Of a stretch of DNA of 27,758 bases, positions 16,155 to 27,144 are shown one piece after another. This DNA is from Nanobdellota archaeon. GTDB taxonomy: Archaea > Nanoarchaeota > Nanoarchaeia > Woesearchaeales > GW2011-AR9. How positions within the stretch are numbered: the first letter of the stretch is position 1; the number at the start of each line of letters is the position of its first letter. The notes below the pieces were generated by a model. The model did no database searches. It was not told the DNA's origin and saw only the letters and a list, made by a program, of their open reading frames with translations. The DNA lies in assembly GCA_002687775.1 (NCBI GenBank), contig NZBF01000017.1:1-27758 (forward strand), written 5' to 3'. The translations under genes were made by a program, and so were the position numbers.

Positions 16155-17915
16155 CTAATTCAATTCTGAAGGTTCTTCCCGAACAACAGCCCGTATTCTC
16201 CGCACACCAGCTGCGACTGACTTTTGTTTGACAATTTTAAAATAACCAATATCTTTCGTATTCTTTACGTGAGGTCCACCACAAAATTCTTTTGAATAAT
16301 CACCAATAAGATAAACAGAAACAATATCAGGATATTTCTGACCAAATTCCATTTCAGCACCAATTTTAATAGCTTCAGTTTTTGACATCTCTTTTCGTAT
16401 GACAGGAATTGCTTCATGAATAATCCGCATCATTTCTTCCTCAACTTGCGCAACTTCCTGTTCAGTTAATTTTCTATCAAAACTAAAATCGAATCGTAGT
16501 CGTTCTGAAGTAATATTACTTCCTCTTTGCTTGATATCTTTCGAAATTACTCGTCGCAACACTTCATTGAGTAAATGAGTAGCTGTATGCATCTTAATCG
16601 TATCTTCTGATAAATCTGCCAAGCCACCTTTGAACTTTTTCTCAGCACCTTTCTTTGACAACTTCTTATGTTCTTCATACTCTTTGAAAAAACCCTCAAC
16701 ATCAACTGTGATTTTTTTCTCATCAGCTAACTCTTCAGTCATTTCTAATGGAAATCCGTATGATTGGAATAGTAAGAATGCCCCTTTACCACTTATATTT
16801 TTTTGTTTAGACATCTTATCAAACTCTCGTAATCCTTTCTCAATAGTTTTTTCAAATTTCTCTTCTTCTTGTTGTAATTCAGTGAAAATAAATTTCTCAT
16901 TTTTCTTCAATTCAGGATACATTGGTTTGTATTCCTTGATAACTTCATCTGCTAATAATGGAAGGAAGGAATCTTCAATACTAATCATTTTTCCGTACCT
17001 AATTGCACGTCGAATTAATCTTCGCAAGATGTAACCCCGGTCAAGATTACTTGGAGTGACTGCATTGTCATCTCCTAAAATAAATACACTCGCTCTTATA
17101 TGATCAGCAATGATACGCATTGCTTTTTGTTCCTTTTCATATGATTTTTTGGATAATTCTTCAATCCGCTTAATAATCGGTTGAAACAAATCAGTTTCAT
17201 ACGCACTCTTTTTACCATTAAGTACAGCTAATGTTCTTTCGAATCCCATTCCGGTGTCAACATTCTTTTTATCAAGCGGTTTGATACCATCCTTTGTTTT
17301 GTTAAATGCCATGAAAACATCATTCCAAATTTCAACCCACCGCTCATCCTGTGGATCGTATTTCTCAGGAGCTTTACTATTACCAGTCCAATAAAACATC
17401 TCACTACTTGGACCACATGGACCAATTTCACCAGCAATCCAGAAATTATCCTTCTCTAAGAAAGCAATTCTATTTTTTGGAATGCCTAAATTTCTCCAGA
17501 TGTCATACGCTTCTTCATCTTTTACAAGATCTTTATTTCCCTTAAAACAAGTCACAGCTAGCATGTTTACTGGAATTTTCAGAACTTTTGTCAAAAATTC
17601 ATAACTCCACTCGATAGCTTCCTTTTTGAAGTAATCACCTAAACTCCAATTTCCAAGCATTTGAAAGAATGTATGATGGGTATTATCACCTACTTCATCA
17701 AAATCCACCGTTCTGAGACATTTCTGATTGTTGACTAATCGTTTCCCCTGAGGATGTTTCTGACCCGATAAGTAAGGTACTAACGGCTGCATACCTGCTG
17801 TGTTAAATAATACTGATGGATCATTGATAGGGATTAAACTAGCACTTGGGATAACAGCGTGCCCCTTAGTTTCAAAGAAGTGTAAATACGCATCTCTAAG
17901 TTCTTTTGCTTTCAT
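16155..17915 (-). CDS. alaS: Alanyl-tRNA synthetase, short bacterial type
   Basis: AlaRS charges tRNA-Ala and edits mischarged Ser and Gly. The 586-residue protein has the catalytic core from M-K-A-K-E-L-R-D-A-Y-L-H-F-F, with motif 2 around N-Q-K-C-L-R-T and F-F-Q-M-L-G-N-W-S-L-G-D-Y-F, the motif G-E-I-G-P-C-G-P-S-S-E, motif 3 G-M-G-F-E-R-T, and the editing-domain zinc ligands H443-T-A-T-H447, C545 and H549. The N-terminal form is bacterial rather than the longer archaeal form. The protein stops right after the editing domain and lacks the C-Ala region of about 290 residues that E. coli AlaRS (876) has. Short forms of this kind are known in reduced-genome lineages. A TATA box 26 bp before the ATG predicts a leaderless mRNA. 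Confidence 0.97.
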   Translation of the reverse strand: MKAKELRDAYLHFFETKGHAVIPSASLIPINDPSVLFNTAGMQPLVPYLSGQKHPQGKRLVNNQKCLRTVDFDEVGDNTHHTFFQMLGNWSLGDYFKKEAIEWSYEFLTKVLKIPVNMLAVTCFKGNKDLVKDEEAYDIWRNLGIPKNRIAFLEKDNFWIAGEIGPCGPSSEMFYWTGNSKAPEKYDPQDERWVEIWNDVFMAFNKTKDGIKPLDKKNVDTGMGFERTLAVLNGKKSAYETDLFQPIIKRIEELSKKSYEKEQKAMRIIADHIRASVFILGDDNAVTPSNLDRGYILRRLIRRAIRYGKMISIEDSFLPLLADEVIKEYKPMYPELKKNEKFIFTELQQEEEKFEKTIEKGLREFDKMSKQKNISGKGAFLLFQSYGFPLEMTEELADEKKITVDVEGFFKEYEEHKKLSKKGAEKKFKGGLADLSEDTIKMHTATHLLNEVLRRVISKDIKQRGSNITSERLRFDFSFDRKLTEQEVAQVEEEMMRIIHEAIPVIRKEMSKTEAIKIGAEMEFGQKYPDIVSVYLIGDYSKEFCGGPHVKNTKDIGYFKIVKQKSVAAGVRRIRAVVREEPSELN

Positions 17916-26091: not shown

Positions 26092-26691
26092 ATGAACGTT
26101 ACAAAAGAACTTGCAGAAATACTTGGGTTACTTTGTGCAGAGGGTTGTCATGTTTTATCCCACTCTAGTTACTGGGGAAAAGATAAAGGAAAGAAAAGAT
26201 ATTACAAAAACCAAAAATCGGAAAGAATTGAATTCTACAATAAAGATGAAAAATTGTTATTCCATTACAAAAATCTACTGCTTAAAGAATTTGACTACAA
26301 TCCAAACATTACAAAGCATGGTAAAATAAATATCTGCAAAGTCTTAATAATTAGAAACATATTATGTCATACTGCACTAGGGCATTTAAAATGGCAGATT
26401 CCAAAATCTGTTACAAACTCGGATAAAGAAATAAAAATTGCTTTCCTTAGAGGATTTTTCGATGGTGATGGAACTGCAAGTGGTTGTGTAAGAATGTTTT
26501 CTACAAATTATCCCGGGATCAAACAGCTTTCTCAGTTGCTAAATGATCTGAGTTTCAAACATACAATCCAGGGTCCAATTATCAAAGATGGTCGTAAACC
26601 CTCATATATCATACAAATTAGCAGGAAAGAGGAAGAAAGATTTTTAAAGGGTGTTGATCCAATATCTAAAAGACCAGATCTGCGGGGGTAA
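26092..26691 (+). CDS. LAGLIDADG-family homing endonuclease
   Basis: The 199-residue protein carries two LAGLIDADG motifs: E-I-L-G-L-L-C-A-E17-G near the N-terminus and F-L-R-G-F-F-D-G-D-G at about 118-127. It is therefore a monomeric double-motif enzyme that cuts a long DNA target. The second motif is canonical, while the first has Glu as its acidic residue, as some relatives do. A TATA box puts the mRNA start at the ATG. The gene is not inside a visible intron: its last 10 bp (26682-26691, including the stop codon) are the first 9 nt of tRNA-Leu plus the first intron base. This overlap suggests the endonuclease is linked to the mobility of introns in the neighbouring tRNA genes, or that its insertion targeted the tRNA 5' end. 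Confidence 0.9.
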   Translation: MNVTKELAEILGLLCAEGCHVLSHSSYWGKDKGKKRYYKNQKSERIEFYNKDEKLLFHYKNLLLKEFDYNPNITKHGKINICKVLIIRNILCHTALGHLKWQIPKSVTNSDKEIKIAFLRGFFDGDGTASGCVRMFSTNYPGIKQLSQLLNDLSFKHTIQGPIIKDGRKPSYIIQISRKEEERFLKGVDPISKRPDLRG

Positions 26692-26721
26692 TCCTTAAGC
26701 TTAGTTGCTTTGGGACCTTAG
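26691..26721 (+). other. tRNA-Leu intron 1, 31 nt, position 9/10
   Basis: The BHB is formed by exon GGGG (26685-26688) with CCTT (26716-26719, G-T wobbles), bulges TAA and AGG, and an intron hairpin TCCTTAAGC/GCTTTGGGA with one T-T mismatch. Confidence 0.75.
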
Positions 26722-26738
26722 GCAAAGTCTGGTCAAAT

Positions 26739-26762
26739 ACAAGGAAATACGCCTTGGTGAAA
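26739..26762 (+). other. tRNA-Leu intron 2, 24 nt, position 23/24
   Basis: The intron hairpin CAAGG/CCTTG (loop AAATACG) is next to a short helix of TCAA with GTGA (three pairs and one A-G), with bulges ATA and AAG. The weak helix makes this a relaxed BHB. Confidence 0.65.
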
Positions 26763-26776
26763 GCGCAGGACTTAAG

Positions 26777-26808
26777 TCCATGATGGGGCCCTTACTTCGT
26801 CGTAAGAT
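26777..26808 (+). other. tRNA-Leu intron 3, 32 nt, canonical 37/38
   Basis: Exon CTTA (26771-26774) pairs exactly with intron TAAG (26803-26806); the bulges are AGT and ATA. The inner helix CCATGATG/CTTCGTCG pairs at six of eight positions. Confidence 0.8.
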
Positions 26809-26840
26809 ATCCTGTCCCTTAGTGGGTTCGTGGGTTCGAA

Positions 26841-26859
26841 AGCCTTAAAGGTACGAAAG
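26841..26859 (+). other. tRNA-Leu intron 4, 19 nt, position 59/60 (T-loop)
   Basis: Exon TTCG (26835-26838) pairs with intron CGAA (26854-26857), with bulges AAA and AGT. Removal restores the consensus T-loop TTCGAAT. The inner hairpin GCC/GGT is short and leaves one unpaired A. Confidence 0.7.
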
Positions 26860-26873
26860 TCCCTCCCCCCGCA

Positions 26874-26925: not shown

Positions 26926-26997
26926 GCTCCTGTGGCGCTGCGTAAATGCAGCAGCATTTAATAGTGCGTGCGGCATTCACTACGTTCAACCCCACAC
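26926..26997 (+). repeat. 72-nt leader starting with a copy of the tRNA-Thr 5' end
   Basis: GCTCCTGTGGC at 26926-26936 repeats the first 11 nt of tRNA-Thr (26998-27008) exactly 72 bp upstream. The TATA box points to the first copy. The leader can form TAAATGC-AGCA-GCATTTA (26943-26960) and TAGTG-N11-CACTA (26962-26982). An intron between the copies is unlikely, because a BHB would need self-complementary repeat bases. Confidence 0.55.
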
Positions 26998-27016
26998 GCT
27001 CCTGTGGCTCAGCGGT

Positions 27017-27033
27017 CAGATTTATCTTGCTAA
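27017..27033 (+). other. tRNA-Thr intron 1, 17 nt, position 20/21 (D-loop)
   Basis: Exon AGCG (27011-27014) pairs with intron TGCT (27028-27031); the bulges are GTC and AAA, and the inner hairpin is AGA-TTTA-TCT. The exon helix GCTC/GAGC borders it directly. Splicing restores the D-loop AGCGGTA. Confidence 0.85.
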
Positions 27034-27041
27034 AGAGCGCT

Positions 27042-27057
27042 AAGCTAGACTCGCTAT
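27042..27057 (+). other. tRNA-Thr intron 2, 16 nt, position 28/29
   Basis: Exon AGCG (27036-27039) pairs with intron CGCT (27052-27055), with bulges CTA and ATA and a two-pair AG/CT inner hairpin. Splicing restores the anticodon stem strand CTACC. Confidence 0.78.
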
Positions 27058-27066
27058 ACCTTGGTA

Positions 27067-27103
27067 TATTCCGTTCGGAATGATTTGAAATGGAATTCCA
27101 AAG
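27067..27103 (+). other. tRNA-Thr intron 3, 37 nt, canonical 37/38
   Basis: Exon TTGG (27061-27064) pairs with intron CCAA (27098-27101); the bulges are TAT and AGA, and the inner helix is ATTCC/GGAAT with one unpaired T next to it. Confidence 0.85.
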
Positions 27104-27138
27104 AGGTAGAGATCCCGGGTTCAATTCCCGGCAGGGGC

Positions 27139-27144
27139 TTTTTT
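27139..27144 (+). terminator. Oligo-T terminator after tRNA-Thr
   Basis: Six consecutive T begin at the discriminator base. Confidence 0.55.

What the first reader, a model, noticed from the sequence alone, without database searches (positions are those of the whole stretch)
26682..26873. tRNA-Leu(UAA) split by four introns
Removing 31, 24, 32 and 19 nt at positions 9/10, 23/24, 37/38 and 59/60 gives an 86-nt class II tRNA with the right anticodon and one T-T mismatch. Each junction sits in a BHB-like fold with 3-nt bulges, and three noncanonical sites are used. Multi-intron tRNAs are known mainly from Thermoproteales and some small archaea; four in one gene is, to my knowledge, at or above the usual maximum.
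Basis: partly seen in the sequence, partly recalled or inferred. Interest (0 to 1): 0.85.

Follow-up and report, generated by a model that had tools for sequence, protein, structure and literature searches.

The report
Leucine tRNA gene with four introns
A tiny uncultured archaeon carries a leucine transfer-RNA gene cut into five pieces by four small introns, one more than the maximum in the reviews we read, and beside it sits a DNA-cutting enzyme gene that in related archaea is repeatedly found at this same tRNA gene.

Summary
Confirmed. Positions 26682-26873 hold a tRNA-Leu(UAA) gene with introns of 31, 24, 32 and 19 nt at 9/10, 23/24, 37/38 and 59/60. The proof is comparative: relatives carry the same exons joined at these points, and one (L093) has no intron. 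The host is a Woesearchaeota-type archaeon. Of 133 tRNA-Leu(UAA) genes parsed from its order (window included), 20, 65, 26, 19 and 3 have 0, 1, 2, 3 and 4 introns; one gene from the wider phylum (G384) has five. Passages read in three papers give three as the maximum. The bulge-helix-bulge core is complete for three window introns, incomplete (3 of 4 pairs) for the second. Splicing itself is unproven.

Not in the finding: a LAGLIDADG homing-endonuclease gene (26092-26691) whose stop codon is tRNA positions 8-9 plus the first intron base. Close homologues recur upstream of tRNA-Leu(UAA) in scattered relatives. All 5 enzyme-adjacent genes of 133 have the 8/9-9/10 intron, against 18 of 128 others (Fisher p = 1e-4, ignoring kinship; a kinship-aware test was not significant). 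Enzyme and 5' intron may be a linked homing unit, but one homologue lies beside a gene without that intron.

The parts
26682..26873 (+). tRNA-Leu(UAA) gene, four introns
   Evidence: spliced product called Leu(taa); orthologues
26682..26690 (+). exon 1 (positions 1-9)
26691..26721 (+). intron 1, 9/10, 31 nt; central helix 4 of 4 counting G-T pairs (GGGG/CCTT); 9-bp inner stem with one T-T
   Evidence: full inner stem by eye
26722..26738 (+). exon 2 (positions 10-23)
26739..26762 (+). intron 2, 23/24, 24 nt; central helix 3 of 4, 5-bp inner stem
   Evidence: no central helix in RNAfold
26763..26776 (+). exon 3 (positions 24-37, anticodon UAA)
26777..26808 (+). intron 3, canonical 37/38, 32 nt; central helix 4 of 4 by the rule, not in the RNAfold minimum
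26809..26840 (+). exon 4 (positions 38-59)
26841..26859 (+). intron 4, 59/60, 19 nt; central helix 4 of 4 with covariation at position 57
26860..26873 (+). exon 5 (positions 60-73)
26092..26691 (+). LAGLIDADG_3 homing-endonuclease gene, 199 aa; stop TAA = tRNA T8, A9 and first base of intron 1
   Evidence: ORF; Pfam E 9.9e-14; I-DmoI among PDB matches; synteny

Best explanation
This is a real tRNA-Leu(UAA) gene of a Woesearchaeota-type archaeon, probably the cell's only one. Its primary transcript would be cut at eight places by the archaeal splicing endonuclease (EndA) at bulge-helix-bulge motifs and joined by the RtcB ligase into an 86-nt class II tRNA. Shown here: the sequence, the exon joins by comparison with intron-free relatives, and conserved or covarying BHB cores. 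Inferred: transcription, cutting, joining, and that it is the only copy. The lineage gains and loses introns in this gene at a limited set of positions, so four (five in G384) is the upper tail of a continuous spread, not a separate mechanism.
For: Spliced product is a clean Leu(taa) cloverleaf. Orthologues lack introns at these joins. Score 140 against a null maximum of 67, n = 120. 133 of 133 parsed genes splice to ARAGORN-called tRNA-Leu. Central helix complete in 108 of 182 introns of at least 14 nt (186 in all) at the predicted register, against at most 13 at eight shifted registers; for noncanonical sites 60 of 75 against at most 13, after taking out three introns of shorter genes that are probably canonical (61 of 78 before). 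The BHB score also settled sliding boundaries, which favours the true register somewhat. At 59/60, exon position 57 and intron base -6 read A-T 16, G-C 4, G-T 1 of 21, no mismatch; the window is G-C. EndA profile: one hit in 46 of 49 family genomes, two overlapping pieces in one, none in two.
Against: No RNA evidence. Intron 2 has only 3 of 4 central pairs and no BHB in its minimum-energy fold; intron 3's central helix is not in the minimum-energy fold either. T-T at 50-64. The window's own EndA, RtcB and possible second tRNA copy were not seen because no genome is held; RtcB was not searched for at all. One EndA gene suggests a single-subunit enzyme, a type thought (recalled) to favour canonical motifs; PMC4090602 (passage) assigns Nanoarchaeota a two-subunit enzyme, of which no second gene was seen.
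Confidence: 0.93

Rival explanations
1. Homing unit: the LAGLIDADG enzyme encoded just upstream cleaves tRNA-Leu(UAA) genes lacking the 8/9-9/10 intron; the intron breaks the target and protects the host copy; repair copies enzyme gene and intron together. This would explain intron 1, not the other three introns. It adds to the best explanation rather than replacing it.
For: All 5 of 133 tRNA-Leu(UAA) genes with the enzyme gene directly upstream have this intron, against 18 of 128 without it, Fisher p = 1.0e-4; leaving out the window as index case, 4 of 4, p = 6e-4; with the G134 remnant, seen by eye, 6 of 6, p = 1.5e-5. Bearers are scattered: window, G012 and G021 as one clade is rejected, p-AU 2e-6, quick tree; G019 and G020, closest to G021, lack both. 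In 56 of 108 untruncated homologues the C-terminus reads as tRNA 5' exon, against a mean of 6.1 and maximum of 13 in 500 tail shuffles; 35 of 36 informative tails do not run on into exon 2. G384, outside the order sample, has the same kind of overlap and a 5' intron.
Against: P0074 reads straight from exon 1 into exons 2 and 3: enzyme beside a tRNA without the 5' intron. In G491 the enzyme gene lies upstream of a tRNA-Leu(UAA) whose extra intron is in the D arm, not at 8/9 (by eye). 18 intron-bearing genes (17 without G134) have no enzyme gene upstream. Tree-aware pair test not significant: 4 pairs, median p 0.25, range 0.125-0.5. HE identity to the window tracks AlaRS identity (G021 62.8 against 60.4, G012 58.5 against 60.1, G194 53.3 against 58.5 %), no sign of recent transfer. 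Tail motifs were chosen after seeing the tails. No cleavage data.
Confidence: 0.3
2. The enzyme gene merely uses the conserved tRNA flank as a landing site, as many mobile genes do, and the 5' intron is an old, independently inherited feature of this order.
For: 5' intron without enzyme gene in 18 of 133 genes (17 if the G134 remnant counts); enzyme without 5' intron in P0074; HE divergence tracks AlaRS; tRNA genes are common integration sites (recalled).
Against: Association in 5 of 5 (or 6 of 6) genes; enzyme tied to this tRNA at the same end and orientation in several distant genomes.
Confidence: 0.5
3. A decayed tRNA pseudogene made unusable by accumulated inserts.
For: T-T mismatch 50-64 (by eye) and a weak second BHB.
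Against: Exons near-identical to intronless orthologues; paired covariation in introns; exact exon-3 sequence found once in each of 32 matching family genomes.
Confidence: 0.03
4. Assembly chimera or sequencing artefact.
For: The window is from an unnamed record with no held genome.
Against: The window's HE protein is recorded on 4 contigs; the same intron sites occur in independent genomes.
Confidence: 0.01

Closest known systems
Multi-intron tRNA genes of Thermoproteales (Pyrobaculum calidifontis tRNA-Glu and P. islandicum tRNA-Pro with three introns; PMC4390854 and PMC8450103, passages read)
   Same: several short BHB introns at canonical and noncanonical sites
   Different: three is the stated maximum; here four, in one relative five; Woesearchaeota-type lineage; noncanonical sites mostly keep a complete 4-bp core (60 of 75)
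Intron-rich tRNAs of Atabeyarchaeia and Freyarchaeia (Asgard; PMC11291895, passages read; supplement not available)
   Same: over half of tRNA genes have multiple introns, often noncanonical
   Different: different phylum; maximum per gene not given in the passages read
Archaeal rRNA BHB introns encoding LAGLIDADG enzymes such as I-DmoI (PMC4496867 passages; I-DmoI match; its rRNA-intron origin recalled)
   Same: enzyme family, BHB intron
   Different: here the enzyme gene lies outside the intron, 5' of a tRNA gene and overlapping it
Collaborative homing of phage introns by adjacent free-standing endonucleases (term seen in the search listing; mechanism recalled)
   Same: intron without ORF next to a free-standing homing gene
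   Different: protein-spliced tRNA intron in archaea; homing not shown

Membership tests
Archaeal BHB-intron tRNA gene | removal yields a standard tRNA cloverleaf | tested here: met
Archaeal BHB-intron tRNA gene | 4-bp central helix between two 3-nt bulges at each junction | tested here: inconclusive
   met for introns 1, 3, 4 by the pairing rule; 3 of 4 pairs for intron 2; RNAfold shows it for 1 and 4 only
Archaeal BHB-intron tRNA gene | intron-free orthologues with the same joins | tested here: met
Archaeal BHB-intron tRNA gene | splicing endonuclease present | tested here: inconclusive
   found in 47 of 49 family genomes, not seen for the window's own genome
Archaeal BHB-intron tRNA gene | RtcB ligase present | not tested
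   no search made
Archaeal BHB-intron tRNA gene | precise cutting and ligation in the cell | not testable with these tools
   no RNA data
Group I intron | ribozyme core, usually 200 nt or more (recalled) | tested here: not met
   introns 19-32 nt; no Rfam match at gathering score
LAGLIDADG homing endonuclease | family profile match | tested here: met
   PF14528 E 9.9e-14, 4 of 4 members
LAGLIDADG homing endonuclease | two motifs with acidic residues | tested here: met
   LLCAEG and FFDGDG in the window; E17, D124 and D126 invariant in 4 of 4; motif assignment by eye
LAGLIDADG homing endonuclease | site-specific DNA cleavage | not testable with these tools
   none
HE-encoding mobile BHB intron | ORF inside the intron | tested here: not met
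   ORF 26092-26691 lies 5' of the tRNA and overlaps it by 10 nt

The most novel reading that the evidence does not exclude
A LAGLIDADG homing-endonuclease family has settled at tRNA-Leu(UAA) genes of Woesearchaeota-type archaea, reads into the tRNA's own 5' exon, and travels with a BHB intron at 8/9-9/10 that makes the host gene immune. That would be a mobile unit in which a protein-spliced tRNA intron serves as the immunity element, and an engine for the intron gain seen in this lineage.
Probability: 0.3. Interest if true: 0.82.

Novelty: new variant of a known kind. Interest (0 to 1): 0.62.

Why it matters
Four introns (five in G384) exceed the three stated in the passages read, and place extreme tRNA fragmentation in Woesearchaeota-type archaea, where one apparently single-subunit splicing endonuclease must do the work. 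The gene finder used here recovered 1 of 48 genes with two or more introns, so such genomes may be wrongly scored as missing tRNAs. The endonuclease link offers a testable route for how tRNA introns spread, a long-open question.

Tried and rejected
Own genome search and download: not held. Viral relatives of the HE: 8 pattern matches, none a relative. Paper searches for a four-intron or multi-intron archaeal tRNA, for Woesearchaeota or DPANN tRNA introns and for HE beside tRNA BHB introns listed no report of either that I saw in listings or in passages of eight papers; the library lacks most subscription journals and supplements were not available. First spliced-alignment run could not place introns at the exon-3 boundary and misplaced intron 2 by one base; rerun. 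Dropped before counts: 12 of 145 exon-3 loci (low score, truncated or other tRNAs); 33 of 50 exon-2 loci (other Leu isoacceptors, low score or unusable; 17 kept). L132, counted among the 19 three-intron genes, has two doubtful introns (5/6, 67/68). Not fetched: of the rows printed, G229, G231, G234, G235, G236 and G009:C82, plus all matches beyond its printed list; 6 of 56 rows. One search took 79 of the 145 order genomes without an exon-3 match. HE hits not looked at for context: G077 beyond a motif scan that printed nothing, and G509 and G405 not at all. G012 against G016: only the tRNA itself aligned, so no empty-site comparison; G019 and G020 against G021: flanks shared but inverted around the tRNA. 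A motif scan printed nothing and was rerun wider. No protein structure was predicted.

Full report
OBSERVATION. Exons 26682-26690, 26722-26738, 26763-26776, 26809-26840 and 26860-26873 join to 86 nt, called tRNA-Leu(taa) by ARAGORN, with one T-T mismatch at 50-64 (by eye). The unspliced locus is missed by ARAGORN and by Rfam at gathering score and up to E = 10. For each intron no other boundary gives the same product (by eye).

WHO IT IS. The seven best AlaRS matches, 66-70% identity, are MAGs titled Woesearchaeota, Nanoarchaeota or archaeon. No genome is held for the window, so whole genomes of relatives were searched.

PROOF BY RELATIVES. Two orthologues, L087 and L090, carry the exons contiguous at 9/10, 23/24 and 59/60 and only a canonical intron. 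L093 has no intron and matches exons 2+3 letter for letter over 31 nt. In the family of G004, 32 of 49 genomes have an exact exon-3 match, each once; with one base left free, one of them (G009) has two.

SURVEY. In the order of G004, 207 of 352 genomes matched the exon-3 pattern, 10 of them more than once. I parsed 145 loci (window, family, HE loci and most printed rows); 12 were dropped. The 133 kept have 0, 1, 2, 3 and 4 introns in 20, 65, 26, 19 and 3 genes; the four-intron ones are the window, L143 (G087) and L259 (G151). All 133 spliced products are called tRNA-Leu; unspliced, ARAGORN finds 72 of 85 with 0-1 intron and 1 of 48 with two or more. A null with the anchor planted in 120 resampled flanks peaked at 67; the window scored 140 and the cut-off was 103. 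A second, biased set came from 79 order genomes without the exon-3 pattern plus G384: of 50 loci, 17 were kept with 0, 1, 2, 3 and 5 introns in 2, 2, 7, 5 and 1 genes. Twelve of these carry an intron at 30/31, inside the anticodon stem, which hides them from the first pattern. G384 has five introns, at 8/9, 21/22, 30/31, 37/38 and 51/52, all with complete central helices.

BHB CORE. With the rule that exon bases p-5..p-2 pair with intron bases -6..-3 (recalled geometry, worked out on the canonical intron), the window introns have 4, 3, 4 and 4 of 4 pairs. Over 182 of 186 introns the helix is complete in 108 at the true register and in at most 13 at eight shifted registers; noncanonical 60 of 75 against at most 13. 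The score was also used to settle sliding boundaries. At 59/60 position 57 and intron base -6 read A-T 16, G-C 4, G-T 1. RNAfold shows the central helix in the minimum-energy fold of the junction for introns 1 and 4 only. EndA: one hit in 46 of 49 family genomes, two overlapping pieces in G038, none in G017 and G049. The G012 protein, 212 aa, best matches PDB 3iey chain A and 1a79, which I recall as the N. equitans catalytic subunit and M. jannaschii EndA, and lacks the short insert of the former in that alignment. A single-subunit enzyme that needs a strict core would fit the mostly complete helices; that is inference, and PMC4090602 (passage) assigns Nanoarchaeota a two-subunit enzyme.

THE NEIGHBOUR. 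ORF 26092-26691 is LAGLIDADG_3 (I-DmoI among PDB matches). Its TAA stop is T8, A9 and the first base of intron 1. In the family its only close homologues are in G021 (63%) and G012 (60%), both upstream of tRNA-Leu(UAA); 18 other genomes have weaker matches, best E 7.6e-11. In the order, 7 of 352 genomes match at E 1e-12 or better. Of the further ones, G194 shows the same stop-codon overlap; G206 has a disrupted copy upstream; G134 has a broken copy on another contig and a C-terminal-like remnant upstream of its tRNA-Leu (by eye); G181's copy ends at the contig end; G077 (28%) was not placed. By tblastn, 5 of 133 genes have the gene upstream; all 5 have the 8/9-9/10 intron, against 18 of 128 others, Fisher p = 1.0e-4, or p = 6e-4 without the window. 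A quick species tree scatters the bearers and rejects window+G012+G021 as a clade, but the tree-aware pair test is not significant, and HE identities track AlaRS identities. Of 113 database homologues, 108 reach the C-terminal motif and 56 end in residues that tRNA-Leu's 5' exon would encode, against a mean of 6.1 in shuffles (motifs chosen after inspection). Of 36 informative tails, 35 do not continue as exon 2; P0074 does, a counterexample. In the phylum sample 10 of 371 genomes match at E 1e-15 or better, three of them already named. G384 and G491 have homologues upstream of tRNA-Leu(UAA), but the extra intron of G491 is in the D arm; G442's frame runs into another tRNA-like gene; G382's faces one on the opposite strand; G411's shows none in the 350 nt printed; G509 and G405 were not looked at (by eye).

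LITERATURE. All papers were read as passages only. Up to three introns per archaeal tRNA: PMC8450103, PMC4033280, PMC4390854. PMC11291895 reports multiple introns in over half of tRNA genes of three Asgard genomes, maximum not stated in the passages. PMC12397907, PMC4090602, PMC4496867 and PMC6125680 gave background. I cannot exclude a report of four elsewhere.

VERDICT. A real four-intron tRNA gene, near the top of a continuous spread, with an endonuclease partner that I found in no paper searched and whose role is open.

Noticed in passing
window 26998-27139: tRNA-Thr(GGU) directly downstream, with apparent introns of 16, 16 and 37 nt; the spliced 73-nt form is called tRNA-Thr(ggt). ARAGORN misreads the unspliced gene as tRNA-Trp. 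First two BHB cores weak as placed (3 and 2 of 4).
   Followed up: partly
window 26926-26936 and 26998-27008: The first 11 nt of tRNA-Thr are repeated 72 nt upstream, as if the 5' exon had been duplicated.
   Followed up: no
upstream of tRNA-Leu in many family loci (for example L092, L094, L100, L120): A conserved leader, roughly GACACCTGYG about 25 nt before the tRNA (by eye), present in L094 and L100 despite the HE but missing in the window, where the HE reading frame takes its place.
   Followed up: no
L347/L340 (G384): tRNA-Leu(UAA) with five introns, all with complete central helices, with a homing-endonuclease frame running into it.
   Followed up: yes
L347, L360, L361, L363, L364, L370, L375, L379, L381, L382, L387, L388: Intron at 30/31 inside the anticodon stem, ending in GCGAA or GCGAT, next to the canonical one.
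   Followed up: partly
L367, L368: tRNA-Leu(CAA) genes with a 31-nt intron near 8/9-9/10, so this site is not confined to the UAA isoacceptor.
   Followed up: no
L341 (G442): A related LAGLIDADG frame runs into another, unidentified tRNA-like gene beginning GCCGGGAT (by eye).
   Followed up: no
window 26691-26721 and L094: Window and G012 use 9/10 where most other 5' introns use 8/9; the run of five Gs at positions 3-7 would let the central helix slip by one.
   Followed up: no
window 16155-17915: Short AlaRS (586 aa) whose 80 kept relatives include many bacterial records at 51-58% identity.
   Followed up: no
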